Shown here: positions 1-16,066 of the stretch, piece after piece | Layout: the number at the start of each line of letters is the position of its first letter | Numbering within the stretch: position 1 is the first letter of the stretch | Assembly: GCA_009786085.1 (NCBI GenBank) | Contig: WQTW01000008.1 | Span: 1 to 34,489 of the forward strand | Direction: 5' to 3' | DNA length: 34,489 nucleotides | DNA from: Pseudomonadota bacterium | GTDB lineage: Bacteria > Pseudomonadota > Gammaproteobacteria > Burkholderiales > Casimicrobiaceae | Program-made: the position numbers and the translations under genes | The notes under the pieces: generated by a model | Database searches by the model: none | What the model saw: the letters and a program-made list of their open reading frames with translations, nothing else | What the model was told of the DNA's origin: nothing

Positions 1-145
1 AGCGGGAGAGGGGATTTGTGTAGGTGGCACGACAAACCCCCGTCCGTCTTCGACGGACACCCCCTTTGAAAAGGGGGCTTTATAAGATTGCTGAACGCCC
101 CCTCTCCCTCTGCCCCTCTCCCGCGAGGGGTTAATGTATGGCGGT
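1..145. repeat. Repeat-filled 3' flank (R2, R5 elements)
   Basis: No gene is visible here. Bases 1-14 look like the 3' half of an R2 palindrome. Bases 33-81 are an R5 element: CAAACCCCCG, then the hairpin GTCCGTCTTCGACGGAC, then CCCCCTTTGAAAAGGGGG. Bases 103-131 are another R2 palindrome. The R5 copy recurs in opposite orientation at 34281-34327. The two hairpins could stop transcription coming from either side, but no convincing T-tract terminator is seen. Confidence 0.75.
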
Positions 146-3100
146 TCATGGGCGTTCTCCACGATGGTGTGATTCGCGCGTTGTGTGGGCAGACAACTTG
201 TCCCCCTCTCCCCCTGCCCCTCTCCCGCGAGGGGAGAGGGGAGAGAATGTACGTTTCCACGCGACACCGACCAACATCAGCAGCAGGAGCAGAAGCAACG
301 GCGGGGTCAGTGTCGGAATGTGCTGGAGGTTGCCCGATGTGGTTCCCACGGCGGTCACGGTGAATCCGGCGCTGTCGATGGTTTCCCATGTTCCGTTGTC
401 GTCAACAGCCAAAATGGCGGTGTAGCCGCCGGGCGTCAGTGCGCCGGTCGGAATGTTCACCAGCGGCCAGCTTCGGCTCTCGCCGACGGCAAGGGTAACG
501 GTGTTTTGTACGCGGGAGATTTCGGCTCCGTCGCTGTTTCTCAGCAACACGCGGGCTATCGTCACGTTGTCGAGTGAGGCGCCGCCGGTGTTCTCAACGG
601 TGTCGCTGCGGCTCTGCGGATCGCCCTGAACTACGACGGGATGCGCCAGGGCGACGCTTCCATCAATAATACCCGCGCCTATCGGCACTGCCGCTTTGAC
701 AATATAGCCGCTGCTCGCCTGTGCAAGGGTGACGCTGTTTTTGTCCTCAAGCCTGGCTTCGATGGTGTAATGTCCCAGCGGCGCAGAAATCAACCTCTGC
801 GGCGTTTCAAATCGCCGCGTCCCGCGAGCGACAACATCGCCCAGCGCTTCCGCGTGGCTAAAGACGATGTTGTTCGACGGATCACGCACAGTCAAGGTGA
901 CGCGGGCGCTTTCGATGGCGGTGTTGAGGGAAAGGTTGTTCGCCAGTGAATCAAGCATCACCAGATCGTTCGATGTGTATTCGATCTGGTCGGGCGCGAC
1001 TCTCAGCGAAGCCGACAGTTGCCCTCTGGCGATCGACAGGATGGCAAAGAACGCACGGTCGCTGGCAACGATGTTGCCGTCCGTATCGAAAAGTTCGCCA
1101 TGAAGCACGTAGGAGCCGGCAACATACCGCGCTGTGTTCCAGTGTTGTTGGTGCTCAACCATGCCATTGGAAATCAACATACCCAAGTCTGTTTCAGCGA
1201 AGGTTTCCACGACGATATCGTCGGCATCAAGAACGGAAAGCCGCACTTTGAAGCCCGCCGGGAAAGCGCCCAGATTCCTGGACAGCGCGTCAAACAACAC
1301 GGCTGTTTGCGGTGGATAGGCGGGCTGATCGGTGGAAACGTTGAGACTCGCCAGCCGGTTGGCGGCAGCCACCGAGATTTGAAGCCGGTTGTTGGCGATA
1401 TTGCACTCAGCGTTGATCCGGTTTTCATCGACGATGGCTTCTATCGGGTCGTCGCTGACGAGGCTCACGTTATTGAGCACCAAGTCGGCAAATGCGCCGG
1501 TTTTAAGGGCGGCGACGGGAACTTCGCCCAGCAATGTCCCGGATTGGTAGAAGCGGACATTGGCCGCCTGAGACAAGCTGCCCGCATTGCCGATGCGCGT
1601 CGCCAGCGTTACCGGCTGACCCGCGCCTTTGTCGATCAGCCGCAAGTTTCCCAAAGTCAGATCAACCGAGCGGATCGAATCGGCCAGCGCGCGCGCCATC
1701 GCCGCCGCGATTTCGCCCGATGTGTTGGCAAGGGTGACTTTTCCGCCATGCAGGGAGTTGACGGGTTTTGGCCAGGCGTTGGCTTCGAGTTCTGGGACAT
1801 TGGCCCATCCAATTCCTATAACGTCAATCCGTGAAACGCCGTTGGCGACAGTTTGCGGTAACTGGCTTTGGGTGGCAGGAATGCCTTCCCAATAGCCATC
1901 ACCAACAAGAACGAGGGTCTTGCTGCTTCCTTGAGGCGACAGGGTTTTCAGATACTCGGAAAGCATCAGAGCGCATTTCGGTCCTGAGCTATAGCCACCT
2001 GTTACCCTCTTGTTCTTGAGATCGTCCAGCAGTTGCTGCAATGTAGCGGGTGTAACTACCACAGCCTGATGCAACGGAATGAAAGGCCCGTAGTACATCT
2101 CAAGATCGGTTCCCAGCGTAAAACGTATTGAGCCATCGTGAGGAATGATGTTCGGGTTCTCGACAGCCTTGATCACACCTTCCATTTCGAGATCGTAGAG
2201 GTGGCTCACGCTACCGGAAGTGTCGATGCAGACCGCCACATCCTGAAAACCACCACCCACAGAACAGGAGGGCGAAACCCGCAAGGTGTTGTTTCCTTCA
2301 ATGGTTTCGATCACTTCAAGATCGCTGTCTACCATCAGATAAATCGGCGCGTCGCGGAAGGGCAGCAAGGCACCATCAATGGAAAAAGTCATGGCCCTTT
2401 CCTGCTGTCCGGAAAGGGCATCCATCCGCTGGCGAAAAAGCAAAACATCAACACCGGCATCCCAAGCCTCGTTGTGGTTGGTATCGACAAAGGCAATGAC
2501 GTTGAAAGCGCCCGCATCGTAGTTGCTATTGTTGACGACCTTGACCGATACCGTGCCATTAGCTTCGAACGTGTTGGGATCAACCACGAGCAGGGAACGA
2601 TCCGCTTCCCTCAACTGCAAGTCGGGCAAGGCAGCGTTATAGCTGCGGTTCAACATGATCGTGCCCAGGTATTGGGATTGCGCCCTTTCCCGGACAAACG
2701 GGAATACGACCATATCGTAACCCGTCATGCTCACCATCAAACGAGCATGGCTTTCAGCCAGCCCCTCGAACAGAAAATCCCCATTTGATTGACTGTAGCC
2801 TCTTTGTTCAGCCAATACTGTAGCTCCCAAGATGACTTCCTGGAGCAGGATGGCGGCGCCGTGAATCGGTTCAAGGCTTACGGCATCGACGACCGTGCCG
2901 AAAATCTCAAATGGAACGGTCGCAGAACCACTCCATTTTGGGGAAAGCATGGCATTGACTTCCGTCGTGTTTTCTATCGACAGCGAATACGTCATCGCTT
3001 CATAGCCACCATGTTGAATATGGAGCATGACCTCCCCTCTTGCGACATCGGTAAATTCGTAATAACCCCGTGCGTTGCTTGTCGCTGTCGCGGTATGTGC

Positions 3101-5341
3101 GCCACTGAGCAAAAGCACCGCGCCGCTGACAGGCTGCTTTGTGATGTTGTCCAGAACAACACCGTACAGACTTGGATGGATATTGGCTTCCGGCAACAGT
3201 CCGGCAGGCAGCTCATATGCCTGACCGGGCTTGACGTTGAAGCTCGCAAACACCGACTGGTATCCGACCGCGTTGATCTGTGCGCGGGTATCTCCGAGGC
3301 TCAAGACATTAACCGTCGCTACACCATCGGCGCCCGACAAGATGGTCGCCGTGGTTGCACCGGAAAGGACGATCTCCGCGCCATGAATGGGCAGGTTTGT
3401 AGCTCGGTCGGTCACGGTGACTTTCAGCGACGATTCCGGCTGTGTGCCGGTCAATGCCGTGAGGCCGACATTGAAAACCGTGAACCAGTTGTTATAGACA
3501 AAAATCCTGTAGGTGGCTGGCTCATAGCCTGCTTTCGAGAAAATAATGTCGTCTCTCGAAAGCGTGATACCCGTGAATTCGTATTCTCCCTGCGCATTGG
3601 TCTGTGTTTCCAAGCTCCAAGTTGGAACCTGAACGCTAACACCTGCAAGCGGCAACCCGGTATCAGTATCCGCCACCGTCCCTTTAAGCACCGCTCCTGT
3701 ACCGGTGTACGGAACCAAAGAAACGGGAACTTCGATATCCTGCCACCCTTTGAGATCAATCTTTATCAAAGCGATCTCGTAACCGTAGTGCCACACCTCG
3801 AAAAAGTTTTCTCCGAGAGCCAGCGAATTGCTGTGCGTCGCCACGCCCTGAGCATTGGTGGTGACATTGACGGTCGTACCCACCGGATCGAGAGCAATAG
3901 TAACGCCCGACAGGGGCGAGCCCGTTTGCGCGTCGGTGACGATAAACTTAACGCTTCCTGCCGACGATGTTTGTTTGAACAGCAAATCCAGGTTGATGAC
4001 CTCCCCGGCTTTTGCCGTAAATGAAGCCCGGATGATGGGGTAGTTATAGTAACTAGCCTCCAGTTCAATCTGTCCGGCAGGAAGGCCTGTCAGCGTATAG
4101 GCACCAGAACCATCAGCGCTAACGATTTGCGTACCAGCCTTAATGGAAGCGCCAGAAGCTACATAAATTATGCCAGCAACCGAATGATAATAGTGAGCAA
4201 CGCCAGTGATGGTGACATCATTACTCACCCCGGCGATCAGCCGCAGTTCGCCCAGATCGAGATCCTGTCCAGTTTGCAGATTCAACGGCGCAGATAGCGG
4301 GCGGTATCCCGTAGCCTCAACGGAAAGTTGTTCCGCTCCTGCGTTAAGGTGCGTGAATGTAAAGCGCCCCTGCGCATCGGTATTGATAGTCAGATTGGTT
4401 CGCGCCAGCCTGACGGGCACGTTCTCAATAGGCAAGCCAGTATCGTTGTCAACGATGGTTCCGGTAATGCTGGCGTGATCAGGGTTGGGAGAAGGCCTGG
4501 ATGTGGCGCCAAGCACCTGCAACACCAGCGCCGTCACATAGGCGTCGCCCTCCCAACTCCCATTGGCAGATTGCGCGTCAGAAAGTACTGTCAGCGCGGT
4601 TTGCACGCTGTTGGTGTCCGGCAACATCAACAACACCGCCCGCAAGGCATGCGCGTTGTTCAGCACATTGCCCCAGTGTCCGGCGCTCTGTTGCGCCATC
4701 AACCCGTTTTGCGCCCGTGTGAGGTTGGCGTTGATGTTGAAGGTTTTTCGATACAGCCAGACCGCTTCCATCGCCTGCGCGGTTGCGGCCAGATCAAAGC
4801 CGCCTTCCATGCCGTCCCAGCGGCCATCGGCTTTTTGCTGGCTTAACAACCATGTGAGCGCTCTTTGTGTTTCGCTGCCGTTCAGTTGTCCAACGGCTGC
4901 CAACGCTTTTAACGCCCAGGTCGTGTCCAGCACCGAGCTTTCATACCATTGCTCAAAGCCGAAGCCGCCATCGGCGTTTTGGTAACTTTTGAGTGTTGCG
5001 ACGAGTGCTGCGGTCGGCTTTTCTTGTTGCGCGTTGGCAATGATACGACGCGCTACGGTCTCTGCGCTGTTGTCGGGCGAAGCGTTCAAGAAATCCAGCG
5101 CACGGGTTTGCGCTGTATCGACCGGCTGTTTCAGCGAATGAAAAACGGTCAGCGCTTCACTGGTCGATTGTTCCGGCAACGCGATGTCTGCCGAGGTTGA
5201 GTACGAACCATTGGACGGCTGACTTTGCGCCTGCAACCATGAAACGCCCTGGTCGATGCTACTGGCGTTGGCAGGAAAGACCGCACATAAACCGATGATG
5301 TACGCTAAAGACAGCACGATTCCCTTGAGTAACGAACGCAT
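146..5341 (-). CDS. Giant secreted multidomain protein: toroid, CarboxypepD-reg-like repeats, VWA, CARDB, IPTL-CTERM-like
   Basis: This is a 1731-residue protein. Residues 1-26 form a signal peptide (cleavage after ANA). Residues about 28-280 look like a prenyltransferase/squalene-cyclase alpha/alpha toroid, with repeated helices and NADGGFGFE, KADGRWDG and SANGSWEG turns. Residues about 290-895 hold seven carboxypeptidase-regulatory-like beta modules with recurring DTGLP and TNAQG motifs. A CARDB-like segment (905-1022) precedes a VWA domain (1032-1225) whose MIDAS is DTSGS at 1040-1044. Three to four more beta domains (1227-1665) lead to HIPTLTP and a leucine-rich membrane segment ending WKR (1674-1697), which resembles an IPTL-CTERM sorting signal. 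This suggests export and surface anchoring or adhesion. The last 34 residues come from R2 repeat DNA, beyond the expected end of the sorting signal. The start has AAGAGG a few bases upstream. The function is unknown; the toroid need not be enzymatic. Confidence 0.9.
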   Translation of the reverse strand: MRSLLKGIVLSLAYIIGLCAVFPANASSIDQGVSWLQAQSQPSNGSYSTSADIALPEQSTSEALTVFHSLKQPVDTAQTRALDFLNASPDNSAETVARRIIANAQQEKPTAALVATLKSYQNADGGFGFEQWYESSVLDTTWALKALAAVGQLNGSETQRALTWLLSQQKADGRWDGMEGGFDLAATAQAMEAVWLYRKTFNINANLTRAQNGLMAQQSAGHWGNVLNNAHALRAVLLMLPDTNSVQTALTVLSDAQSANGSWEGDAYVTALVLQVLGATSRPSPNPDHASITGTIVDNDTGLPIENVPVRLARTNLTINTDAQGRFTFTHLNAGAEQLSVEATGYRPLSAPLNLQTGQDLDLGELRLIAGVSNDVTITGVAHYYHSVAGIIYVASGASIKAGTQIVSADGSGAYTLTGLPAGQIELEASYYNYPIIRASFTAKAGEVINLDLLFKQTSSAGSVKFIVTDAQTGSPLSGVTIALDPVGTTVNVTTNAQGVATHSNSLALGENFFEVWHYGYEIALIKIDLKGWQDIEVPVSLVPYTGTGAVLKGTVADTDTGLPLAGVSVQVPTWSLETQTNAQGEYEFTGITLSRDDIIFSKAGYEPATYRIFVYNNWFTVFNVGLTALTGTQPESSLKVTVTDRATNLPIHGAEIVLSGATTATILSGADGVATVNVLSLGDTRAQINAVGYQSVFASFNVKPGQAYELPAGLLPEANIHPSLYGVVLDNITKQPVSGAVLLLSGAHTATATSNARGYYEFTDVARGEVMLHIQHGGYEAMTYSLSIENTTEVNAMLSPKWSGSATVPFEIFGTVVDAVSLEPIHGAAILLQEVILGATVLAEQRGYSQSNGDFLFEGLAESHARLMVSMTGYDMVVFPFVRERAQSQYLGTIMLNRSYNAALPDLQLREADRSLLVVDPNTFEANGTVSVKVVNNSNYDAGAFNVIAFVDTNHNEAWDAGVDVLLFRQRMDALSGQQERAMTFSIDGALLPFRDAPIYLMVDSDLEVIETIEGNNTLRVSPSCSVGGGFQDVAVCIDTSGSVSHLYDLEMEGVIKAVENPNIIPHDGSIRFTLGTDLEMYYGPFIPLHQAVVVTPATLQQLLDDLKNKRVTGGYSSGPKCALMLSEYLKTLSPQGSSKTLVLVGDGYWEGIPATQSQLPQTVANGVSRIDVIGIGWANVPELEANAWPKPVNSLHGGKVTLANTSGEIAAAMARALADSIRSVDLTLGNLRLIDKGAGQPVTLATRIGNAGSLSQAANVRFYQSGTLLGEVPVAALKTGAFADLVLNNVSLVSDDPIEAIVDENRINAECNIANNRLQISVAAANRLASLNVSTDQPAYPPQTAVLFDALSRNLGAFPAGFKVRLSVLDADDIVVETFAETDLGMLISNGMVEHQQHWNTARYVAGSYVLHGELFDTDGNIVASDRAFFAILSIARGQLSASLRVAPDQIEYTSNDLVMLDSLANNLSLNTAIESARVTLTVRDPSNNIVFSHAEALGDVVARGTRRFETPQRLISAPLGHYTIEARLEDKNSVTLAQASSGYIVKAAVPIGAGIIDGSVALAHPVVVQGDPQSRSDTVENTGGASLDNVTIARVLLRNSDGAEISRVQNTVTLAVGESRSWPLVNIPTGALTPGGYTAILAVDDNGTWETIDSAGFTVTAVGTTSGNLQHIPTLTPPLLLLLLLMLVGVAWKRTFSPLSPRGRGAGGEGDKLSAHTTRESHHRGERP
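199..243. repeat. R2 palindromic repeat inside the 3' end of the giant gene
   Basis: CCCTCTCCCGCGAGGGGAGAGG is a near-perfect palindrome with C-rich flanks. Read on the minus strand it encodes the tail SPLSPRGRGAGGEGD of the giant protein, directly after the basic end of its anchor segment. The same element recurs at 103, 23520, 27672, 28424, 30508 and 34181. Confidence 0.8.
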
Positions 5342-5722: not shown

Positions 5723-6124
5723 ATGAAAGATGAGCACGCAGAATTTTCAAAACGTTTGGCAGCGGCAATGCGCGCGATGGGGTATGAGGCGCGCCCGTCT
5801 ATTCTTTATAAGCGATTTAACTCGCGTTATCGCGGCGAGTCCGTCAGTTTTCAAACCGCGTCGCGCTGGCTGAACGGCAAAAGCCTCCCTGAGCAGGAGA
5901 GGCTCGTCGTGCTCGCCGAGTTGTTTCGCATTGACCCGCAGACGTTACGTTATGGCGGCAAGGATCAAGCACATAAAAATGCGCCGCCTTTCATGTGGCC
6001 AGATCAGGTGACTCCACGCTATCAAGCGCTGTTCGAGGATTTCCTGGCGCTACCCGAAAAGCAACGCGAGATCGTCGGAAATTTGATCGCGTCCCTGACG
6101 GAACTCGCCCATAAACAGAAATAA
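5723..6124 (+). CDS. XRE/Cro-CI-like helix-turn-helix transcriptional regulator
   Basis: A 133-residue cytoplasmic protein. Residues about 8-75 form a phage-repressor-like HTH: helix 1 FSKRLAAAMRAMGYE, then GESVSFQTASRWLNGKSLPEQERL as the recognition region, then VLAELFRIDPQTLRYG. This variant, with VSFQTASRWLNGK in place of the usual S(Q)xxxSxxExG, is common for small proteobacterial XRE regulators. The C-terminal part (90-133, FEDFLALPEKQREIVGNLIASL) is helical and may dimerise. The gene is divergent from the giant secreted-protein gene, so it may control that promoter or its own; no operator is proven. Ribosome site is weak (AAGG about 11 bases upstream). Confidence 0.75.
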   Translation: MKDEHAEFSKRLAAAMRAMGYEARPSILYKRFNSRYRGESVSFQTASRWLNGKSLPEQERLVVLAELFRIDPQTLRYGGKDQAHKNAPPFMWPDQVTPRYQALFEDFLALPEKQREIVGNLIASLTELAHKQK

Positions 6125-6262: not shown

Positions 6263-6309
6263 CCTCTGACCTCTGACCTCTGACCTCTGACCTCTGTCAT
6301 CTGACCTCC
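6263..6309. repeat. R1 heptad array at the end of the outer membrane factor gene
   Basis: On the minus strand GAGGTCA is repeated in tandem with a 7-base period. The array begins inside the last codons of the outer membrane factor gene: it supplies GAGGTCAGATGA, giving residues E-V-R and the stop. Other arrays lie at 16064, 23654, 26941 and 27513. Confidence 0.85.
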
Positions 6310-7763
6310 GACAACCCTATCGCCTGAAACAACGCTACGGTACTCGCGTAGCGGTCTGCCGCCGATTGAACTCGCGCCAGCAACGCTTCCAGATAGCGCC
6401 GCTCGGCATCGAGCACGACCCACTGATCGACGCCGCCCAGTTGATAACGCGCGTCTATCAGCCGATACGTTGCCAGTGCTTCATCGACCGCCGCACTGCG
6501 CGCTTTCAAGGTCAGCGCATCGGTTTCCAACGCCCGCAACGCATCGGCGACATTCTGAAATCCCTGCAACACGGTTTGTCTGTACCCTGCTGCTGCTGCA
6601 TCAAACGCTGCTTCGGCAGCGCGTTTGTAAGCTTGCAATTCGCCGCCGCGAAACAGTGGTTGCGCAACACCCGCACCCAGATTCCAGAGATTGAAACCTT
6701 CGGCAAACAGTTTTTCTCCGCTCAACGCCGCAGAACCGAAACTGCCGCTCAAGGTCAGGCGCGGATACAGATTGGCCGTCGCCACACCGACGTTGGCGCT
6801 CGCCTGATGCAGCATTGCTTCGGCAGCGCGAATGTCGGGGCGTTGACGCACCAGTTCGGAAGGAACTGTTAACGGCAGTGCTTCCGGCAGTCGCAAATCG
6901 GCGAGATGAAACTGCGGTAGCGTTGCCTCGCCCGGCGTCGTTCCCGAATACAACGCCAGTTGATGACGCACGCTGTACAACAACCGTTGCAGCGGGGGCA
7001 AACGCGCCTGATGTTCGGCCAGCGCGCTTTTCAGTTGTTGCACATCAGCGTCGGACACGCCGCCCAGCGCGCGCCGCGCTTCGAGAATCGCCAACTGTTT
7101 TTGCAACGCCTCGATCATCGTATTCAAAACACCGATTTGCTCGCGCAACGACGCTTCGCGCACAGCGGCAGCGGCGATATTGGCCGCCAGCGTCAGTCGC
7201 GCCGCTTCCAGTTGCCAGGATTTGATTTCCGTTGCCGCCTGCAAACCTTCCAGCGCCCGCGCATTGGCGCCGAACCAGTCGAACGTATAAGAAACGCCGA
7301 CCGATACGTTGTAAAGCGTGAACGGCGGCGGGCTGGGCATCGTTGTCATTCCCATCGTGACGAAATCGACTTGCTGCCGCGCTGCCGATACGCCGACATC
7401 GGCCGATGGATAGCGCGACGCACCGGCGCGCGCCAGATATTCTTCCTGCGCCTGCCGGAGACGCGCCTCGGCTTCCGCCAGCGTCGGATGGTTTTCCAAC
7501 GCCTGTGCGATCAGTTGATCGAGCGCCGCATTTTGAAAAAGCGTCCACCAGGGTTTGCCGTGCAACACGTCCTCGTTGACGAATCGCTGCGCCGCGCCGC
7601 CGTGCGCAACCGTTGGAACGTCTGCGGTTTGTTCCGGCAACGGCGTCTCCGTATAGTGCGTTACCGTCGGCGCTTCCGGCGATTTGAAGTCGGGGCCGAC
7701 CGCGCAACCGCAAAGCGCCACAGTGAAGCAACAAACAACAATAGAGGCTTTTTTGAAATACAC
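6297..7763 (-). CDS. TolC/NodT-family outer membrane efflux lipoprotein
   Basis: About 488 residues from the GTG at 7763, which I prefer because it starts directly at a lipoprotein signal (FKKASIVVCCFTVALCGC, lipobox cysteine 20, then AVGPDFKSP as in NodT/OprM-type factors). An in-frame start further upstream (7994) would add 77 residues encoded by R3 repeat DNA and is unlikely. Two outer-membrane-efflux repeats are visible: PWWTLFQNAALDQLIAQAL with long coiled coil, and a second half with PSELVRQRPDIRAAEAMLHQA. Known role: the outer membrane duct of tripartite pumps. It is the last gene of the set with the ABC permease, ATPase and fusion protein, but a repeat-filled 241-base gap separates it from the permease. 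The last residues and the stop lie in an R1 array. No strong ribosome site is seen. Confidence 0.85.
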   Translation of the reverse strand: MYFKKASIVVCCFTVALCGCAVGPDFKSPEAPTVTHYTETPLPEQTADVPTVAHGGAAQRFVNEDVLHGKPWWTLFQNAALDQLIAQALENHPTLAEAEARLRQAQEEYLARAGASRYPSADVGVSAARQQVDFVTMGMTTMPSPPPFTLYNVSVGVSYTFDWFGANARALEGLQAATEIKSWQLEAARLTLAANIAAAAVREASLREQIGVLNTMIEALQKQLAILEARRALGGVSDADVQQLKSALAEHQARLPPLQRLLYSVRHQLALYSGTTPGEATLPQFHLADLRLPEALPLTVPSELVRQRPDIRAAEAMLHQASANVGVATANLYPRLTLSGSFGSAALSGEKLFAEGFNLWNLGAGVAQPLFRGGELQAYKRAAEAAFDAAAAGYRQTVLQGFQNVADALRALETDALTLKARSAAVDEALATYRLIDARYQLGGVDQWVVLDAERRYLEALLARVQSAADRYASTVALFQAIGLSEVR

Positions 7764-7786
7764 ATGGGTTATATGGCTGAATATCT

Positions 7787-7945
7787 CATGCGAAGACGCG
7801 AAGACGCGAAGGGATACCGAGGGAGTTGCGACATAGGTAAGCGTTTTTTCATCTGATGCCACGTTGCCCGTCGGCGAAGCGAGGCATTGGCTTTGGCGCG
7901 CGCTTGAACGCCAGCCTTCGCGTCTTCGCGCCTTCGCGTGAAAAT
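7787..7945. repeat. Inverted pair of R3 repeats in the permease to outer membrane factor gap
   Basis: GCGAAGACGCGAAGACGCGAAG at 7789-7811 and its inverted counterpart CTTCGCGTCTTCGCGCCTTCGCGTG at 7914-7940 flank about 100 bases. This makes a long potential stem in any transcript running through from the ABC genes. The enclosed stretch contains GGCGAAGCGAGGCATTGG, loosely related to R9. No gene is seen in 7764-8004. Confidence 0.75.
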
Positions 7946-8004
7946 TTTCTTGATGGCTTCGCTTTGCCACCCACCTAAAAATTGAAAGAGCCATGAATGT
8001 TTCC

Positions 8005-9156
8005 TCAATCCAGCGTGCGCCGATAAAACTTCAGTGCAACACCCATCAGGATGACTGTAAAAAGCATCAACGGCCACACATTCGGCCACAAATCCAGCCA
8101 ACTGTTGCCTTTCAACATGATGCCGCGCACGAGGCGATTGAAATACGTCATCGGCAGCACATGCGCGATGACTTGCGCCCATTTCGGCATCCCGTAAAAC
8201 GGAAACATGAAACCCGACAGCAGCACATTGGGCAGAAAGAAAAAGAACGTCATTTGCACGCCCTGCAACTGATTGCGCGCCAATGAAGAAATGGTGATTC
8301 CGACCGTCAACGCCGCCGCGATATAAATCAAAAGCACCACATAAAGTTCGAGAATGCCGCCGACAAACGGCACATTGAAAAGCGAAATCGCCGCCAGCAA
8401 AATAATGGTCGCCTGAATCAGCCCGATAAAAATATACGGTACGATCTTGCCGGTCAACATCTCCAGCGGGCGCACCGGCGTCGCCAGCAGATTTTCCATC
8501 GTGCCGCGTTCGCGCTCGCGGGTCATCGCCAGTCCGGTGATCATCACCATCGTCATGATCAGAATGACCCCCATCAAGCCGGGAACGATGTTGTATTGCG
8601 TGATCCCTTCCGGATTGTAGCGACGATGCACTTGCACATCGAACAGCGGCGGCGATCCGTTCAATCTTGCCAACGGCCCGCCGAGATCTTTCCAAGCGAC
8701 ACTTTCGGCCAACCGGGTGACGGCGCCGATGGCGTTGCTCGCCGCTGCCGGATCGGTGGCGTCGGCAATCACCAGAACCACCGGTCGTTCGCCACGCACA
8801 AGTCGCCGGGAAAAATCGCTCGGAATGTTGACGACAAATTGCACATCGCCTCGCGCCAGCGCCGCCTCGCCCTCCGCTTCATTGTTCAACTCGCCGACAA
8901 AATCGAAATACGCCGTGTTGTGCATCGCCATGATGAAGCTGCGCGAAAACTCGCTGCGATCGGCATCGATCATCATGGTTTTCAGATGCTTCGGATCCAT
9001 ATTGATCGCGTAGCCGAACAAAATCAGCATCATCACAGGAATGCCGATCACCATCGCAAACGTCAGGCGGTCGCGTTTCAGTTGCAGAAATTCCTTGAGC
9101 ACGACGCCCCAACAACGCGCCAGGGAAAACGTGAACAATGATGAACGGCGGTTCAT
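8005..9156 (-). CDS. ABC-2 type transporter permease (YbhS/YhhJ-like)
   Basis: A 383-residue inner membrane protein. A first membrane helix (TFAMVIGIPVMMLILFGYAI, about 33-52) is followed by a periplasmic domain of about 120 residues (MIDADRSEFSRSFI to RYNPEGITQYN). Five hydrophobic helices follow, with the typical TRERERGTMENLLATPVRPLEML loop between them; this is the ABC2_membrane_3 layout. The known role is to export substrates (drugs in YbhFSR) with a fusion protein and an outer membrane duct. The ATG overlaps the stop of the ATPase gene (ATGA), implying translational coupling. Only one permease gene is present, so it would act as a homodimer. Substrate unknown. Confidence 0.9.
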   Translation of the reverse strand: MNRRSSLFTFSLARCWGVVLKEFLQLKRDRLTFAMVIGIPVMMLILFGYAINMDPKHLKTMMIDADRSEFSRSFIMAMHNTAYFDFVGELNNEAEGEAALARGDVQFVVNIPSDFSRRLVRGERPVVLVIADATDPAAASNAIGAVTRLAESVAWKDLGGPLARLNGSPPLFDVQVHRRYNPEGITQYNIVPGLMGVILIMTMVMITGLAMTRERERGTMENLLATPVRPLEMLTGKIVPYIFIGLIQATIILLAAISLFNVPFVGGILELYVVLLIYIAAALTVGITISSLARNQLQGVQMTFFFFLPNVLLSGFMFPFYGMPKWAQVIAHVLPMTYFNRLVRGIMLKGNSWLDLWPNVWPLMLFTVILMGVALKFYRRTLD

Positions 9157-10118
9157 TGCCCCACCTTTCGCGGTTGCTCTTGCAGCGGTTCCCGCGTTTC
9201 TTTCGGCGTCCGCATCAAATGGATGAACACATCTTCAAGACTGGTTTCCGTTCGCACCATTTCATGCGGCAATCCGGCGACCGTTTCCCGCAATGTTTTT
9301 TCAAGCATGAGCGGATCGCGTCCTGTCACATGCAGCGCGTTACCGAATGCCGCCGTTTGCAAAACCCCCGGCTTGCTCGCCAGCACATCCGACAACTGCG
9401 TCAGGCTTTCGTCGGTCATCTTTCCCTTGATCGCCCAGGTGAACAGTTGTTGCGCCGCGACGATTTCCTGCGCCGTGCCCTGCGCCAGCAACGCGCCGTG
9501 CGAAATGTAAGCGAGCTTGTGACAACGTTCCGCTTCGTCCATGTAATGCGTGCTGACCAGCACCGAAATGCCTTGCGCCGCCAAGCGGTGCAACTCCTCC
9601 CAGAAATCGCGCCGCGCGGAAGGATCCACGCCCGCCGTCGGTTCGTCAAGAAGCAACAACGCCGGTCGATGCAACATGCACGCCGCCAACGCCAACCGCT
9701 GTTTCCAACCGCCGGACAATGTGCCTGCCAACTGATTCGCGCGCGCTTTCAATCCGAGGTTGTTCAGCGCATTTTCGACCGACGCTTTTCGATCCGGCAT
9801 CTGATAAACGCGCGCGATGAAATCGAGGTTTTCGCGGATCGACAAATCCTCCCAGAACGAAAACCGTTGCGTCATGTAGCCGACGTTGCGTTTGATCGCG
9901 TCGCTTTCGGCGATAATGTCGTAACCCAGACACGTGCCGCTGCCCGAATCCGGCGTCAACAAACCGCACATCAACCGGATCGACGTTGTTTTACCGCTAC
10001 CGTTCGGCCCCAAAAAACCGAAAATCTCGCCGGGGCGAACTTGCAACGACAAATCATCGACAACTTTTTTTTTGCCGAAATACTTGTTCAGCCCTCGCAC
10101 GTCGATGGCGAATTTCAT
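9153..10118 (-). CDS. ABC transporter ATP-binding protein (DrrA/YbhF-like)
   Basis: A 321-residue ATPase with a Walker A GPNGSGKTT (37-45), Q-loop at 84, signature LSGGWKQR (134-141), Walker B LLLLDEPTAGVDP (154-166) and H-loop STHYMDEAERC. The C-terminal 90 residues (MTDESLTQLSDVL to LEDVFIHLM) are the extension seen in drug-type ABC-2 exporters. E. coli YbhF carries two ATPase domains; this protein has one and would dimerise. It starts 5 bases after the stop of the fusion protein gene and overlaps the permease start, so the three genes are co-transcribed and coupled. Confidence 0.93.
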   Translation of the reverse strand: MKFAIDVRGLNKYFGKKKVVDDLSLQVRPGEIFGFLGPNGSGKTTSIRLMCGLLTPDSGSGTCLGYDIIAESDAIKRNVGYMTQRFSFWEDLSIRENLDFIARVYQMPDRKASVENALNNLGLKARANQLAGTLSGGWKQRLALAACMLHRPALLLLDEPTAGVDPSARRDFWEELHRLAAQGISVLVSTHYMDEAERCHKLAYISHGALLAQGTAQEIVAAQQLFTWAIKGKMTDESLTQLSDVLASKPGVLQTAAFGNALHVTGRDPLMLEKTLRETVAGLPHEMVRTETSLEDVFIHLMRTPKETREPLQEQPRKVGQ

Positions 10119-10123
10119 AGGAC

Positions 10124-11086
10124 TTACAACAAACGCACCGACACCGGCTGACCGGGGTGCAACGAACGCGCACCGTCCGCCTGAGGATGCGCTTCAACCA
10201 TGAACACCAGCTTGGCGCGGCTTTCGTTGCTGAAAATCACCGGCGGCGTGTATTCGACCCGATCCGAAATGTACGTGATCGTCGCATCCACCGGCGCCGC
10301 GCAACCATCGCAAACGAGACGCACGGCTTGCCCTCTTTTCAATGCGCCGACGTGCGCCTCAGGAACAAAAAAACGCACTTTGACATTTTGCGGCGGCAAC
10401 AATTTCACCACCGGCGCGCCCGCCGCCACCCACTCACCCTCGCGGTACAGCGTGTCCACCACTTCGCCGCTTTTCAACGCCGTCACCGTCTTTTGCCGCA
10501 GCGCCCAATCCGCCTGTTCGAGCGCCGCTTGCATGGCCGTTACCTGTGCTTCCTGTGCCTTGATTTGCTGCGCACGGTTGGGAAGACGCGCCACTTCGAT
10601 CTGATGGTTCAATTCCCGCACCCGCGCCGCTGCCGTTTCAGCGCGAGAACGGCTGTCGTCGCGCTGCGCCTCGGCAATACCGCCGATCGCAAATTGCTTC
10701 TCGTCGCGCTCTGCTTGAATCGCCGCCTGCTTTGCCTGCGCCTGCGCCTGCGCCAGTTGCGCTTCGATCACCTGCACTTCCGGCAAGCGCCGACCGGTTT
10801 GAATATCGGACAACTGCGCCTTTGCTGTAGCGAGCTGCGCCTGCGCCTGTTGCAGCGCGGCGTTTTCCTTTTCCGATTCCAGCGCGAAGAGCGGCGCGCC
10901 ATCCTCCACAATCGCCCCGCGCCGCACCGCCAGCACGTCGAGCCGCCCGCCCAGCGGCGAAGCGACATAGATGTATTCGCCTTCCGCATAACCCTGATAC
11001 GTCTCCGCCGCCTTCTCGGCGCACGCGCCCAACAACATTCCGGTGAAAATAACGGCAACGACTTGCAACCAGCGAACACAGGACAT
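10124..11086 (-). CDS. HlyD/YbhG-like membrane fusion lipoprotein
   Basis: A 320-residue periplasmic adaptor. It has a lipoprotein signal with lipobox LLGAC (cysteine 22). A short lipoyl half-motif follows (EYIYVASPLGGRLDVLAVRRGAIVEDGAPLFAL), then a long coiled coil rich in QAQAQLA (about 70-190), the second lipoyl half (TVTALKSGEVVDTLYREGEWVAAGAPVVKL) and a beta-barrel domain to the end. The known role is to link the inner membrane ABC exporter to the outer membrane channel. An AAGGAG ribosome site lies 5 bases before the ATG. It is first in the ABC set and lies 26 bases after the methyltransferase stop, so read-through from the signalling operon is possible. Confidence 0.9.
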   Translation of the reverse strand: MSCVRWLQVVAVIFTGMLLGACAEKAAETYQGYAEGEYIYVASPLGGRLDVLAVRRGAIVEDGAPLFALESEKENAALQQAQAQLATAKAQLSDIQTGRRLPEVQVIEAQLAQAQAQAKQAAIQAERDEKQFAIGGIAEAQRDDSRSRAETAAARVRELNHQIEVARLPNRAQQIKAQEAQVTAMQAALEQADWALRQKTVTALKSGEVVDTLYREGEWVAAGAPVVKLLPPQNVKVRFFVPEAHVGALKRGQAVRLVCDGCAAPVDATITYISDRVEYTPPVIFSNESRAKLVFMVEAHPQADGARSLHPGQPVSVRLL

Positions 11087-11913: not shown

Positions 11914-12576
11914 CTAGGGCTTGTCAGCGCCCTTCTCGTTCAAAGCATTGGCGCCATAATGCCGGAACAGCGTCCAGGCCAACTTTACCATGCAGGGATG
12001 GTTGAGGATGGGCATTCCGCTCAAAATGAGGACGAAGCGGTGGGTGTCCACGTACAGGGGCCAGAAGCCGATACGGCTGTTGCCCGCAGCATCGACAACC
12101 GCCCAGGCGGAAGTGCCCAAGCGCAGGTTGCCTTGCAGTAAGCCGACATTGCGTTCGTGCAAGATGCCTACCGCGGCAGAGAGCGCCGCAAGTTCTTCGG
12201 CGGTTTCGTGCGGGAAGCCTGCCGTCGCCACGTAAAAGCCTTGAGGGTCGGCCAGCAGGGCGCGACGCAAACTGGAGAGTTCGGACAATGCCTGAGGCAG
12301 CAGGGAGTAAAAAGTGTCTTGCGGTTCTCTGCGTGGTTCGGGAAAGCCTTCTACCCAGCCGGCTTGCTGAACATGCTCCAGCAAAGCCAGGGCGTCTGCA
12401 AGCGGCAGGCCACTCAGGGAAGTCAGTGTTTGTTCGTTCAGTTGAGGCGTGATGGATTGCCGCAGAATGGCGCGCAGAAATTTCGTTGCCATGTCCGGCT
12501 GTTGCTGGCTAAGCGCCCTGTAGGCACCGGCCGGCGTTGTCGCCAGCCAAAGCCCGGTTTCAAGTCTGTACGGCAC
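11914..12576 (-). CDS. Winged-helix plus roadblock/LC7-like protein
   Basis: A 220-residue cytoplasmic protein. The N-terminal half (about 15-80) is helical and looks like a small winged-helix unit (LNEQTLTSLSGLPLADALALLEHVQQAGWVEG). The C-terminal half (about 95-210) has the roadblock pattern: LLADPQGFYVATAGFPHETAEELAALSAAV, then a beta pair with GNSRIGFWPLYVDTHRFVLIL. Roadblock proteins such as MglB bind and activate small GTPases. The gene overlaps the end of the GTPase gene by 17 bases and starts with GTG, with GGAG about 8 bases upstream, so the two are coupled. It is a plausible GAP or scaffold for that GTPase. The domain call is by pattern only. Confidence 0.65.
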   Translation of the reverse strand: MPYRLETGLWLATTPAGAYRALSQQQPDMATKFLRAILRQSITPQLNEQTLTSLSGLPLADALALLEHVQQAGWVEGFPEPRREPQDTFYSLLPQALSELSSLRRALLADPQGFYVATAGFPHETAEELAALSAAVGILHERNVGLLQGNLRLGTSAWAVVDAAGNSRIGFWPLYVDTHRFVLILSGMPILNHPCMVKLAWTLFRHYGANALNEKGADKP

Positions 12577-13117
12577 GCGCAGGCTCCATCAGTCCAGGAT
12601 CAAGTGAGAACAGCAGGGCTTTGAGCAGGGTTCGCATGTCAGCCTCGCTGCGGGCATCAACTTCAAAAATAGGCACCTTGAAATCCAGCTTGCCCAATAT
12701 CTCATGGTACCTGGAGAGGCCGGGACTGGGGGCTTGGTCCATGTGCGTCACGCCGATAACAAAGCGCGTTTGTTTGATCGGCTTGACGAAGGACTTGAGA
12801 AAGAAAGACAGGTCGTTCAGCGGCGTGGGACGGCTGTTGTCAACCAGCAGTATCAGACCGATACAGCCCTCACAGAGAATTTCCCACATAAAATCGAAAC
12901 GCTCCTGACCCGGCGTACCGTAGATATGCACATGCTCGCCGCCGCCGAGATCGAGGCGGCCATAATCCATCGCAACCGTGGTGGTGCGCTTGCGCCGCGC
13001 AACCAAGTCGCTGGCGACCGCGTCGGTTTTGATCGGTTCGATATCGGACAAAGCGCGTACCGCTGTGGTTTTCCCGGCGCCGACCGGGCCGGAGATGACG
13101 ATTTTGTGGTTGCTCAT
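12560..13117 (-). CDS. Small Ras-like GTPase (MglA/Cvn-type)
   Basis: A 185-residue protein. The P-loop GPVGAGKT (10-17) is followed by a switch I candidate TTTVAMDYG (45-53), G3 as YGTPGQERF (66-74) with Gln71, and LILLVDNS. The G3 with TPGQ instead of DxxGQ is typical of MglA and of Streptomyces conservon GTPases. The G4 position reads THMD (124-127) instead of NKxD, and G5 is weak (VDAR), so nucleotide specificity could be relaxed. Family members are molecular switches controlling polarity and motility with roadblock partners. It lies between the receiver-like gene (16-base gap) and a roadblock-like gene (overlap), which supports that role. A GAGAG ribosome site precedes the ATG. Confidence 0.85.
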   Translation of the reverse strand: MSNHKIVISGPVGAGKTTAVRALSDIEPIKTDAVASDLVARRKRTTTVAMDYGRLDLGGGEHVHIYGTPGQERFDFMWEILCEGCIGLILLVDNSRPTPLNDLSFFLKSFVKPIKQTRFVIGVTHMDQAPSPGLSRYHEILGKLDFKVPIFEVDARSEADMRTLLKALLFSLDPGLMEPARAVQT

Positions 13118-13133
13118 CGGTGTGACTCTCTTT

Positions 13134-14228
13134 TTAGCGTGTGCCCATCAGACGTGAAAGGATGCGCCCCAACAAACTACGTTGGCTTTGGGTTTTGGGC
13201 GCTGTCTGGTCTGCCTGAGCGGTTTGGGTGGTTTTCCGGGATGTCCGTGCCTCAATTTCCATCAGGCCGATGGCCGATGCGGCGCAATAAAAAACGTGTA
13301 CATCGCCGAGCGGAATCATCAAATCCTCTGCGATAGTCGCTATGGTGCAGACGCCGGACGACCACAGGGCGGCGATTTGCATGCCATGAGGAATGGGGAT
13401 CAGCCGCGTCATGTTGGGCCAGTAACGCAAGCACATTCGCGCGTTCGGGTCTGCGCCCTCCGGCAAGCGCCCACGAGATGTCCACGCGGCCATTCGCCAC
13501 AGGAAACCCTCCATGCCTTCCGTCTGACCATCGTTGGGCCAGTTGCTTCCGTCCTCTTCGTCGAGGACGCTCATGACCGAACTTGATGCAGGCAGTGCAA
13601 CAACGGAACGCAGCACCAATTCGCGCACCAAGGGATACACTCGCTTGGTGCGGGCACAGATACGGACGAGAGGCAACATGCCACTGCGTAACTCCACCAC
13701 GCGACCCTCGGTTTCCGATCGGCGGTACGTCTGTTGCACCGCGCCGTACAAACATTGGCTCGGGTCGAAGAACATGTTGCGGCTGGCATCATCGAAACCG
13801 TGCGTGTAGTGATTGGAAGGAGGGACTTCTTCCTCCATCGCCAACGCCGCCTTGATCACACGCTTGTCGACTTGCCCGTTGGGAAAAGCGTTTCGACCTA
13901 TTTGCGCCGCGGCTTGATCCAGCACCGTGCGCAGTGCTTCAGGACTGGCGGGCTTGTGCAAGAAGAAAACACCTTCCGGGTGCGACTGGCTGGCGCTGAG
14001 AATCACGGGCACTTTGCCCTGAACTTCGCCGGTCAAGTGTTGGTAGGCAATGTGCCTGCCCTCCGGCGAATCCACGTCAATCAACAGGAGTTCCGCGTCT
14101 TCCACAGAATCGGCAAGCGCGTAGGCTTTACCCGGATAGTGGCTGATACAGTACTCGTAACTGTAGCTCTCGCCACGGTCCATGCCCAGAACCGCAAAGC
14201 GCACAGGGCTTTGGGATGGGTATCTCAT
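13134..14228 (-). CDS. Receiver-like plus winged-helix protein of the GTPase operon
   Basis: A 364-residue protein. Residues about 8-115 have a response-regulator fold outline: LLLIDVDSPEG with Asp51 and Asp53 at the phospho-acceptor end, VPVILSAS with Ser79, and LHKPASPEAL with Lys92-Pro93. The N-terminal acidic pair is reduced to one Asp (17), so phosphorylation is uncertain. Residues about 230-335 (WRMAAWTSRGRLPEG, WPNMTRLIPIPHGMQIAALW, CTIATIAEDLMIPLGDVHVFYCAASAIG) look like a winged helix as found next to MglA-like GTPases. The last 35 residues are a polar Thr/Gln-rich tail. Start and stop overlap its upstream neighbour by ATGA. It could transmit a signal to the GTPase; whether it binds DNA is unknown. 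Confidence 0.65.
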   Translation of the reverse strand: MRYPSQSPVRFAVLGMDRGESYSYEYCISHYPGKAYALADSVEDAELLLIDVDSPEGRHIAYQHLTGEVQGKVPVILSASQSHPEGVFFLHKPASPEALRTVLDQAAAQIGRNAFPNGQVDKRVIKAALAMEEEVPPSNHYTHGFDDASRNMFFDPSQCLYGAVQQTYRRSETEGRVVELRSGMLPLVRICARTKRVYPLVRELVLRSVVALPASSSVMSVLDEEDGSNWPNDGQTEGMEGFLWRMAAWTSRGRLPEGADPNARMCLRYWPNMTRLIPIPHGMQIAALWSSGVCTIATIAEDLMIPLGDVHVFYCAASAIGLMEIEARTSRKTTQTAQADQTAPKTQSQRSLLGRILSRLMGTR

Positions 14229-14932
14229 GACTGCACCTCGGCCATGAGTTCAACACCCTGCACGCGCAAACGCGCCAGGCATGCCCGCTGCGCCTCCGGA
14301 TCATTCCTGTAAGCAAGAATCTTGAGCAGCTCACGTTGCAGGACAAGGTTGTCCGGCTCGGCGCAGATTCCGCCCTCGAGCAGATCGCGCGCAGCGTCCA
14401 TCCGGTCTTGCAGAATAAGTTCGCTGACGTTTTCCAGCAGATCAGAAGATGGCTCGTTGCCGTTGTCCTCTGCTGGATCGCTTACACGATCCAGCAGGCG
14501 GGTCGTACCGGTTGCGCCGCTGCCAAGCAGCGGGACGCAACCTTCGGGCAAACCGACATGCGCCGCTTTGCCATCCGCCAGCCGATCCCGAAACCAGTCC
14601 CGACACGCGACAGAAAGCAACGGAGACGCATACCGAAGCATGCGTTGCCGCAAAGGGTATCCGCTTGCGCCGAGCACCAGGAACATATCCGCCAACGCAT
14701 GGGCAACTTCGGGCGCCTCCTGCTCACACAAATAAACGATACGCTGCACATGGTGGCGCAGATCGGAGGGGTTGCGCGTCACAGCGTGGGAAAACCAATC
14801 TGCGACGCACTGCCCCGGAAGGCCGACACCGACGCCGGCAAGCCGTGTTTGGGCGCTGAGCGCAAAAGACACCTCGCAACCCTGGGCACAACCTCCCTCC
14901 TGCACCGCAGGCGCTCCTCTGTCCTTAAGCAT
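14225..14932 (-). CDS. Uncharacterised protein with C-terminal TPR-like helices
   Basis: A 235-residue protein with no signal peptide. I do not recognise the N-terminal 150 residues, which are largely helical and include CVADWFSHAVTRNPSDLRHH and VAHALADMFLVLGASGYPL. The C-terminal segment (LLENVSELILQDRMDAARDLLEGG, PDNLVLQRELLKILAYRNDPEAQR) reads like one and a half tetratricopeptide repeats, resembling the end of FimV-type proteins, which recruit partners at cell poles. It begins 8 bases after the CZB gene and overlaps the next gene by ATGA. A scaffold role in the GTPase module is an inference from this context. Confidence 0.6.
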   Translation of the reverse strand: MLKDRGAPAVQEGGCAQGCEVSFALSAQTRLAGVGVGLPGQCVADWFSHAVTRNPSDLRHHVQRIVYLCEQEAPEVAHALADMFLVLGASGYPLRQRMLRYASPLLSVACRDWFRDRLADGKAAHVGLPEGCVPLLGSGATGTTRLLDRVSDPAEDNGNEPSSDLLENVSELILQDRMDAARDLLEGGICAEPDNLVLQRELLKILAYRNDPEAQRACLARLRVQGVELMAEVQS

Positions 14933-14940
14933 TGCCGCTT

Positions 14941-15309
14941 TTACTTGACGCCCATGCTCATGCTGTCGAGCTTCATCAGCAGTTTTTCGAATTGTACGAA
15001 TGCTTTTTCCATCTGAGTAAACTCGGCAAAGGCGCCGGTATCGTCGCCGGCCCGCTTGAGTTCCAGAGCCTTGAGACTGTGATGGTGAAAGGCTTCGTGA
15101 GGAGCGGCGATCTGGTCGTAGACCTCCAGGAGCTCACTTCCGGCGGCTTCCATCTCCGCACGACCCTCGTTGTAATACCATTGACCAAACGGGCAAACCG
15201 TGGGTAAGCGGCCCTGGAAGTCGCCCGTGCCATCCAGGGTGGACTGGATTTTATTAAAGCATTTGACGTGGTCATTTACTTGCAGCAGAAAAAAAGTGCT
15301 TTTAACCAT
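14941..15309 (-). CDS. Stand-alone chemoreceptor zinc-binding (CZB) domain protein
   Basis: A 122-residue protein consisting almost only of a CZB domain. The zinc ligands of the family (three His, one Cys) can be placed at His14 (VNDHVKCF), Cys39 in VCPFGQWYY, and His71 and His75 in PHEAFHHHS. CZB domains bind zinc very tightly and occur mostly in chemoreceptors and in the diguanylate cyclase DgcZ; a free-standing copy is less usual. The following helix (GAFAEFTQMEKAFVQFEKLLMKL) could form a coiled coil. A good AGGAGA ribosome site lies 8 bases before the ATG. It sits second in the GTPase operon, after the roadblock gene, so it may feed a zinc or oxidant signal into it. Confidence 0.8.
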   Translation of the reverse strand: MVKSTFFLLQVNDHVKCFNKIQSTLDGTGDFQGRLPTVCPFGQWYYNEGRAEMEAAGSELLEVYDQIAAPHEAFHHHSLKALELKRAGDDTGAFAEFTQMEKAFVQFEKLLMKLDSMSMGVK

Positions 15310-15367
15310 TTTCAGTATCTCCTGTATAAATTATTGCGCCGGCAAGCAAGGTTGATTTTTCTGGCAG

Positions 15368-15394
15368 CGCCTCACATGAATCCAATGTGAGGCG
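15368..15394 (-). promoter_or_regulatory. Intercistronic hairpin between roadblock and CZB genes
   Basis: CGCCTCACAT (15368-15377) and ATGTGAGGCG (15385-15394) form a perfect 10-bp stem with a 7-base loop. No T-run follows on the minus strand, so it is not a standard terminator. It may be a partial attenuator or an RNA stability element that lets the first gene be made in excess. Confidence 0.6.
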
Positions 15395-15453
15395 GACGCG
15401 AGACAAGCCTCAATTGCCGGGGAAATAAATGCCACTACGCTACATAAGACAGT

Positions 15454-15819: not shown

Positions 15820-15867
15820 GATGTGATCTCCAAGTTTAAGGTTGACTGTGATTTGACAAAGCTCCGC

Positions 15868-15873
15868 ATTATA
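15868..15873 (-). promoter_or_regulatory. Minus-10 element of the roadblock/GTPase operon promoter
   Basis: A perfect TATAAT on the minus strand, 48 bases before the roadblock start codon, with G/C-rich sequence following. The minus-35 candidate at 17 bases spacing (GTTTCT) is poor, so an activator may be needed. No gene is seen in 15820-16121; that stretch holds this promoter, about 130 bases without recognisable features, the serC terminator and an R1 array. Confidence 0.5.
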
Positions 15874-16032
15874 CAGAATTGTGAACAGCAAGAAACGTTT
15901 TAGGCGCGAAAACAGTGAAATGTGAATGCTCAGGCGACAATCGGCGATAATTGGCGGCTCAATGGTTTTCAGGTTTAAGCCCCATCTCCATTTCTCCGCA
16001 AGCGCTTTTCTGTGCGCCATGCGTTCTTTGCG

Positions 16033-16066
16033 ACAAAAAAACAGGGCGGGTTTGAAACCCGCCCTG
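16033..16066 (-). terminator. Rho-independent terminator of serC (R6 palindrome)
   Basis: The perfect palindrome at 16042-16066 (arms CAGGGCGGGTT and AACCCGCCCTG, 3-base loop) is followed on the minus strand by seven T residues (16035-16041). It lies 56 bases after the serC stop, beyond an R1 array. The R6 core recurs at 34118-34138. Confidence 0.8.

What the first reader, a model, noticed from the sequence alone, without database searches (positions are those of the whole stretch)
146..5341. Giant exported protein combining an alpha/alpha toroid, seven regulatory-like beta modules, VWA, CARDB and a sorting signal
This architecture mixes a squalene-cyclase/prenyltransferase-type toroid with adhesion-type domains and an IPTL-CTERM-like C-terminus. 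A periplasmic or surface toroid is unlikely to be a terpene cyclase and resembles the toroids of thioester or macroglobulin-type proteins. It could be a surface binding machine.
Basis: partly seen in the sequence, partly recalled or inferred. Interest (0 to 1): 0.55.

Follow-up and report, generated by a model that had tools for sequence, protein, structure and literature searches.

The report
Toroid partner of polymorphic toxin genes
A giant exported bacterial protein built like a ring plus sticky adhesion modules belongs to a widespread gene family that usually sits next to a gene with the hallmarks of a variable antibacterial toxin, so it is probably the surface half of an undescribed two-part toxin system.

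Summary
The ORF is real (1731 aa, window 146-5341, minus). The Pfam exosortase model finds nothing, yet the genome encodes exosortase H, and many of its other proteins end in IPTLxPxxLxLL like this one. The toroid has no DxDD and no thioester.

The new finding is context. Relatives of this protein are usually neighboured, on the same strand, by a pseudo-transglutaminase protein (catalytic Cys replaced, mostly by Ala): 9 of 11 other toroid-bearing genomes found order-wide; 45 of 55 named transglutaminase loci with enough upstream sequence. That partner is organised as a polymorphic toxin: for example 97% identity before a junction and 28% after it, mostly multi-helix membrane C-termini, small downstream ORFs of matching type, displaced copies. 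Inactive-transglutaminase toxins are known (PMC3482391); I found no report of the toroid partner.

Caveat: the contig ends 145 bases past the stop, so the window's own partner is not visible; the genome's only detected transglutaminase homologue is cut at another contig's end. Toxicity and the toroid's role are inferred, not shown.

The parts
146..5341 (-). whole ORF, 1731 aa, giant exported toroid protein (P0001)
5264..5341 (-). signal-peptide-like N-terminus, residues 1-26 (MRSLL...FPANA)
   Evidence: inference from sequence; no signal-peptide program was run
4505..5260 (-). alpha6/alpha6 toroid, residues 28-279
   Evidence: AlphaFold2 pLDDT 96.5; Foldseek and VIA-align matches to squalene-hopene cyclase and terpene cyclase toroids; weak Pfam hits
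2642..4474 (-). seven CarboxypepD_reg / transthyretin-like modules, about residues 290-900
   Evidence: Pfam PF13620, 7 stretches, E 5e-61; outer limits are approximate
2282..2626 (-). CARDB domain 1
   Evidence: PF07705, E 9.8e-5 in the genome search
1646..2269 (-). VWA (DUF1194-like) domain, residues 1025-1232; MIDAS DxSxS and D kept, Thr replaced
   Evidence: AlphaFold2, Foldseek top hits VWA, alignment with 5 relatives, PF06707 and PF00092 in a relative
1382..1633 (-). CARDB domain 2
   Evidence: PF07705, E 6.8e-5 in the genome search
740..979 (-). MG2-like beta domain, residues 1455-1534 (below Pfam cut-off)
   Evidence: PF01835 E 4.7e-5, 24.1 bits against a cut-off of 32.8; region homologous to relatives
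245..319 (-). IPTL-CTERM-like signal IPTLTPPLLLLLLLMLVGVAWKRTF, residues 1675-1699
   Evidence: sequence; same pattern IPTLxPxxLxLL in other proteins of this genome; exosortase H in the genome; the curated model itself does not list it
149..244 (-). C-terminal tail read from a palindromic repeat
   Evidence: sequence
1..149 (-). ORF whose ATG overlaps the stop codon of the giant gene (ATGA), open to the contig end, 49 codons, repeat-derived; not similar to the partner N-termini seen elsewhere
   Evidence: sequence; weak, may be meaningless

Best explanation
The protein is a member of a family of giant Sec-exported toroid proteins that form a two-gene module with a pseudo-transglutaminase polymorphic toxin. 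Shown: the family's toroid genes usually lie next to, and mostly directly upstream of, a gene for a protein with an inactivated transglutaminase domain, a conserved GYxxxDPxTGxGAYxI junction and a non-homologous, usually multi-helix membrane C-terminus, followed by a small ORF. Inferred: that C-terminus is an antibacterial (ionophore-like) toxin and the small ORF its immunity gene; the toroid protein is the surface half, anchored by the exosortase H system or another anchor, with its interchangeable middle module (VWA here; NHL propeller, NIDO or IgGFc-binding domains in relatives) recognising the target cell or surface and its toroid holding the toxin, perhaps through the pseudo-transglutaminase domain. 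Assigning this particular copy to the module is by family and by its closest relatives, because the contig ends right after the gene.
For: Toroid profile A1 was made before the transglutaminase link was known: of 11 other genomes it found among 300 of the order, 9 have a Transglut_core or A3-profile gene beside the toroid gene. Across 368 other genomes of the class, 18 of 21 with a toroid at E<=1e-12 also have the partner, against 25 partner-bearing genomes in all (Fisher 4e-22). Of 55 named loci with at least 9 kb upstream of the transglutaminase match, 45 have the toroid upstream on the same strand and 2 downstream. The closest N-terminal relatives of the window protein, L109 and L116 (36 and 35% identity over about 800 aa), and L117, all carry the pair. 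Partner: catalytic Cys position is A in 69, S in 4, D in 3 and gapped in 2 of 78, His kept in 76, Asp in 78. Polymorphism: L093/L091 97% identical in the 150 aa before the junction and 28% after; L117/L116 88% and 15%; 96 pairs at 55% or more before the junction. 51 of 64 C-termini have 2 or more predicted membrane helices. Membrane character of C-terminus and next ORF agree in 55 of 64 (41 both, 14 neither, 9 discordant; Fisher 3.8e-7). Further transglutaminase fragments follow in 16 of 54 loci. Exosortase H in the genome and IPTLxPxxLxLL ends on other proteins of the genome. Exchangeable middle modules.
Against: No partner gene is in the window, and the genome's only detected copy (G000:C30, 5' end cut off by the contig end) cannot be assigned to this gene rather than to its 2768-aa paralogue on C10. 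2 of 11 order-level toroid genomes (G132, G279) show no partner in about 20 kb, nor do G468 and G530 in the stretches fetched; 8 of 55 partner loci show no toroid. A3 was built from toroid-linked partners, so the 45 of 55 and the class table are partly circular; only the A1 direction is free of that. Membrane helices and next ORFs were called by simple scripts. No toxicity, immunity or binding was tested, and no interaction between the two proteins was modelled.
Confidence: 0.6

Rival explanations
1. An adhesin or matrix protein: toroid, transthyretin-like modules, VWA and CARDB bind host or polymer surfaces, and the neighbouring pseudo-transglutaminase is a second adhesion subunit, with no toxin involved.
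For: VWA, CARDB, NHL, NIDO and IgGFc-binding modules are adhesion-type; the family is common in surface-attached lineages (impression from the record titles).
Against: Does not explain C-termini that swap abruptly at one junction, the matching small ORFs, or the displaced cassettes.
Confidence: 0.2
2. A secreted enzyme or ligand carrier: the toroid binds a small hydrophobic molecule or cobalamin, as in terpene cyclases or intrinsic factor.
For: Nearest folds are cyclases, and intrinsic factor-cobalamin appears at Z 20.1.
Against: No DxDD at the site; the most conserved positions are repeat-type structural residues such as Gly, Trp, Leu and Gln; fused to adhesion modules and linked to the pseudo-transglutaminase gene.
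Confidence: 0.1
3. A thioester or alpha-2-macroglobulin-like protein that traps targets covalently or otherwise.
For: Complement thioester domains appear among the Foldseek hits; MG2-like domains occur.
Against: 0 of 48 toroids carry CGEQ; no Cys in the window's toroid.
Confidence: 0.04
4. This copy is an orphan: it belongs to the family but has lost its partner and degenerated (MIDAS Thr replaced, tail running into a repeat).
For: MIDAS Thr is replaced in the window protein; the tail comes from a repeat; only one transglutaminase homologue was found in the genome, for two toroid genes.
Against: The 1731-codon frame is intact and the C-terminal signal fits the genome's own sorting pattern; assembly gaps fall exactly where partners would be.
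Confidence: 0.25

Closest known systems
Inactive-transglutaminase polymorphic toxins (Zhang et al. 2012, PMC3482391, passages of section 19 read)
   Same: The partner gene has a signal-peptide or membrane N-terminus, a transglutaminase domain with a lost catalytic residue, and variable C-terminal domains; the paper suggests that the domain anchors the toxin by binding peptides.
   Different: The paper says that these domains are followed by RHS repeats; of 7 partners scanned with Pfam here only one (L039) shows an RHS-associated domain. 'toroid', 'squalene', 'prenyl' and 'CARDB' do not occur in the held main text.
CDI ionophore toxins (PMC11630599, abstract and passages read)
   Same: Highly variable membrane-spanning C-terminal toxins, each with a polymorphic immunity protein.
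   Different: CDI uses CdiA/CdiB two-partner secretion; here the neighbour is a toroid protein. Transglutaminase and squalene are not mentioned in that paper.
Squalene-hopene and other class II terpene cyclases
   Same: Same alpha6/alpha6 fold and QW-like repeats.
   Different: No DxDD, exported, fused to adhesion modules.
Teneurin and RHS proteins
   Same: Transthyretin-like and NHL modules of relatives hit teneurin models TTR_TEN1-4 and TEN_NHL.
   Different: No YD shell in this protein; modules sit on a separate gene from the toxin-like one.

Membership tests
Class II terpene / squalene-hopene cyclase | alpha6/alpha6 toroid fold | tested here: met
Class II terpene / squalene-hopene cyclase | DxDD catalytic acid motif | tested here: not met
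   window reads SVLDTT at the site; DxDD anywhere in 2 of 48 relatives
Thioester domain / alpha-2-macroglobulin | CGEQ thioester | tested here: not met
   0 of 48 toroids
Thioester domain / alpha-2-macroglobulin | macroglobulin domains | tested here: inconclusive
   MG2 below cut-off in this protein, above it in L033 and L116
VWA domain | Rossmann-like VWA fold | tested here: met
   PF00092 and PF06707 in relative L101
VWA domain | complete MIDAS (DxSxS, T, D) | tested here: not met
   DxSxS and D in 6 of 6, Thr replaced in the window protein; MIDAS layout is from general knowledge
IPTL-CTERM / exosortase H substrate | TIGR04174 curated model | tested here: not met
   not listed for the C-terminus at E<=10 nor in the genome scan
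IPTL-CTERM / exosortase H substrate | signal, hydrophobic stretch and basic end like the genome's other IPTL proteins | tested here: met
   IPTLTPPLLLLLLL against IPTLxPxxLxLL
IPTL-CTERM / exosortase H substrate | exosortase H in the genome | tested here: met
   G000:C12:888-1439, 83% identical to P0007, which scores TIGR04177 199.5 bits, cut-off 86
IPTL-CTERM / exosortase H substrate | actual cleavage and surface sorting | not testable with these tools
   -
Polymorphic toxin system (the partner gene of relatives, not the window protein) | conserved body with swapped C-termini | tested here: met
Polymorphic toxin system (the partner gene of relatives, not the window protein) | adjacent immunity candidates | tested here: met
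   by mechanical ORF picking; function untested
Polymorphic toxin system (the partner gene of relatives, not the window protein) | displaced cassettes | tested here: met
   16 of 54 loci
Polymorphic toxin system (the partner gene of relatives, not the window protein) | toxicity and immunity | not testable with these tools
   -
Polymorphic toxin system: this window's locus | partner gene next to the giant gene | tested here: inconclusive
   contig ends 145 bases after the stop; the only homologue found in the genome is truncated on contig C30

The most novel reading that the evidence does not exclude
A previously undescribed, widespread two-gene toxin-delivery system in Proteobacteria and some Nitrospirae, Myxococcota and Acidobacteriota: a surface-sorted toroid protein with an interchangeable target-recognition module presents a pseudo-transglutaminase toxin whose membrane-inserting C-terminus and matching immunity gene are swapped as cassettes; the ring-shaped toroid is the docking part for the toxin.
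Probability: 0.4. Interest if true: 0.82.

Novelty: new variant of a known kind. Interest (0 to 1): 0.62.

Why it matters
It turns an odd domain mosaic into a testable system: a gene pair found in cultured genera (Alcanivorax, Acidovorax, Undibacterium, Cellvibrio, Archangium and others) that may be an unrecognised route by which bacteria display variable membrane toxins. It also offers an answer to why toxin proteins would keep a transglutaminase fold without its cysteine: as a docking domain for a toroid partner. That is a hypothesis.

Tried and rejected
Terpene cyclase: no DxDD. Thioester trap: no CGEQ. RNA element upstream: no Rfam match in the window. Exosortase absence: PF09721 gave nothing in G000, which I first took as a refutation of the sorting signal; searching with the short exosortase of G002 overturned that. 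Transglutaminase absence: PF01841 found none in G000; the profile A3 then found a truncated copy at a contig end, which lacks the core domain. The search for related loci with the single protein gave no relative. The overlapping ATGA ORF at 149-1 as the partner's start: possible, but it does not resemble the N-termini seen in G002 and G007 and is repeat-derived. The ABC exporter genes at 6297-11086 as a dedicated exporter: not pursued, because the named relatives were not checked for such neighbours.

Rows not counted or dropped: second toroid site G067:C73 not fetched; 23 of 78 named loci have under 9 kb upstream and are left out of the 55 (4 of these 23 also show a toroid); 14 of 78 transglutaminase proteins had no recognisable junction, several of them truncated or RHS-type; L-loci with under 400 bases after the frame are left out of the next-ORF count. 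The 45 count takes toroid matches at E<1e-6 on the same strand and does not require that no gene lies between; in about a dozen loci a 3-5 kb gap holds another gene (in L033 and L062 it is a NIDO/MG2-type or similar gene).

Papers: PMC3482391 passages, PMC11630599 abstract and passages, PMC12419801 passages, PMC10318531 passages; all others seen only as search listings. That the toroid partner is not in print rests on searches in this open-access library only.

Full report
Observation. The window is the whole of contig C8 of a 2.25-Mb draft genome. The ORF at 146-5341, minus strand, encodes 1731 residues without interruption. Pfam finds seven CarboxypepD_reg stretches and two CARDB domains and only weak toroid hits, with no VWA call. 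Structure prediction settles both open points: residues 28-279 with 47 relatives give a 12-helix toroid at pLDDT 96.5, whose best matches are terpene cyclase toroids, followed further down by complement thioester domains, GH76 and intrinsic factor; residues 1025-1232 give a moderately confident model (pLDDT 76) whose first matches are VWA domains. A homologous region in Alloalcanivorax (L101) hits PF06707 and PF00092.

Chemistry of the toroid. The cyclase acid motif is absent: the site reads SVLDTT, and DxDD appears anywhere in 2 of 48 relatives. CGEQ appears in none, and 35 of 48 toroids have no cysteine at all. The most conserved positions are the Gly, Trp, Gln and Leu residues of the helical-hairpin repeats. 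I therefore read the toroid as a binding scaffold (inference).

Sorting signal. The C-terminus is IPTLTPPLLLLLLLMLVGVAWKRTF followed by about 33 residues encoded by a palindromic repeat. PF09721 found no exosortase in the genome, but the genus carries a short one: P0007 of G002 matches exosortase H (TIGR04177, 199.5 bits against a cut-off of 86), its neighbour P0008 matches the exosortase H-associated membrane protein, and the window's genome has an 83% identical copy at C12:888-1439. TIGR04174 lists 12 proteins over its cut-off in this genome; most of their ends read IP(T/V)LxPxxLxLL, which the window protein matches, although the curated model itself does not list it.

Relatives. Within the genus the closest proteins are 2768 aa or more (own genome, cut by the contig end), 2867 aa and 3029 aa, sharing the toroid, the regulatory modules and a similar C-terminal signal but with NHL propellers in place of VWA. 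Closest over the N-terminal half are Acidovorax proteins L109, L116 and L117; closest over the VWA part are Alcanivorax-group proteins L093, L101, L120 and L134 and an Oceanospirillaceae protein L133. The middle module varies between relatives: VWA, NHL, IgGFc-binding, or NIDO on a separate gene.

The neighbour. A toroid profile built from four proteins (A1), before any neighbour was known, found 12 genomes of 300 in the order, the window's own included. Of the 11 others, 9 carry a transglutaminase-domain gene beside the toroid gene: G002, G049, G063, G067, G175, G198, G202, G250 and G265; G132 and G279 do not in about 20 kb. In G007 the next ORF starts like the partner of G002 before the contig ends. 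In the class, with two profiles and 368 other genomes, 18 of 21 genomes with a toroid at E<=1e-12 have the partner, 7 have the partner alone and 340 neither (Fisher 4e-22); at the looser E<=1e-8 it is 18 of 30, the extra toroids being partial matches with little resemblance. A scan of named genomes with the partner profile gave 78 loci, mostly Beta- and Gammaproteobacteria with a few Nitrospirae, Myxococcota, Acidobacteriota-type and Deltaproteobacteria records; 45 of 55 with at least 9 kb upstream have the toroid upstream on the same strand, 2 have it downstream and 8 have none. Because the partner profile was built from linked copies, this second count is not independent of the first.

The partner is a polymorphic toxin by organisation. 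Its transglutaminase domain has A (69), S (4), D (3) or a gap (2) where the cysteine should be, in 78 proteins, while His is kept in 76 and Asp in 78; the alignment to PDB 3isr places the cysteine at that column. After the junction GYxxxDPxTGxGAYxI the sequence changes abruptly: 97% before and 28% after in L093/L091, 88% and 15% in L117/L116, 89% and 25% in L112/L129; some pairs keep related ends, for example L131/L091 at 55%. 51 of 64 C-termini have two or more predicted membrane helices. The next ORF has a predicted membrane helix in 47 of 64, and the two properties go together (41 both, 14 neither, 3 and 6 discordant; Fisher 3.8e-7). Extra transglutaminase fragments lie downstream in 16 of 54 loci; in L062 two partial copies share their first part and differ at the end.

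In the window's genome. The contig ends 145 bases after the stop codon. PF01841 finds nothing in the genome, but the partner profile finds the 3' part of one partner at the very end of contig C30 (20,770 bases), 64% identical to that of G002, with a hydrophobic C-terminus and a small membrane ORF behind it. It could belong to this gene or to the paralogue on C10, whose contig also ends in the gene. Repeats at all three ends probably broke the assembly (inference).

Mechanism. Most likely (0.6): the toroid protein is the surface-sorted, target-recognising and toxin-docking half of a polymorphic toxin system. Export, fold, sorting pattern, gene pairing and C-terminal swapping are shown by computation; toxicity, immunity, docking and target recognition are inferred. 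Polymorphic toxins with inactive transglutaminase domains are described in PMC3482391, which proposes surface anchoring by peptide binding; I found no description of a toroid partner (searches; passages 53, 57). Membrane-acting polymorphic toxins with polymorphic immunity proteins are described for CDI (PMC11630599), which is what the C-termini resemble in kind, not shown by homology.

Verdict. Observation confirmed, interpretation partly supported, novelty a new variant of a known kind.

Noticed in passing
window 1-250 and many other places: Palindromic CCCTCTCCC..GGGAGAGGG-type repeats occur between genes (6 matches with up to 3 mismatches, 0.02 expected; related copies read directly) and seem to break the assembly and extend reading frames.
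   Followed up: partly
window 6297-11086, minus: Four-gene cluster of outer membrane efflux protein, ABC-2 membrane protein, ABC ATPase and HlyD-type fusion protein behind the divergent regulator upstream of the giant gene.
   Followed up: no
window 5723-6124, plus: Divergent HTH_3 regulator immediately upstream of the giant gene.
   Followed up: no
window 12560-16125, minus: Small GTPase-like protein, two proteins of no known family (13134-14228, 14225-14932), a CZB protein and a Roadblock/LC7 protein in a row: resembles an Mgl-type GTPase module.
   Followed up: no
L062 12804-18975: Partial partner copies with an identical first part and different ends, separated by a transposase-like gene.
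   Followed up: partly
L016 (G010), L061 (G690), L038 (G279), L169 (G132): Toroid domains also occur inside other giant proteins (2063 aa, and frames of 3240 to 5690 aa in the fetched stretches), some with CARDB arrays.
   Followed up: no
G000:C10:1-8308 (L013): Second, larger toroid protein in the same genome, at least 2768 aa, with NHL-type propellers, cut by the contig end.
   Followed up: partly
genome G000: Exosortase H was missed by the general Pfam exosortase model and found only by its own relative; 12 or more IPTL-CTERM proteins, using a P where other lineages have WG (the WG is recalled and seen in L039).
   Followed up: yes
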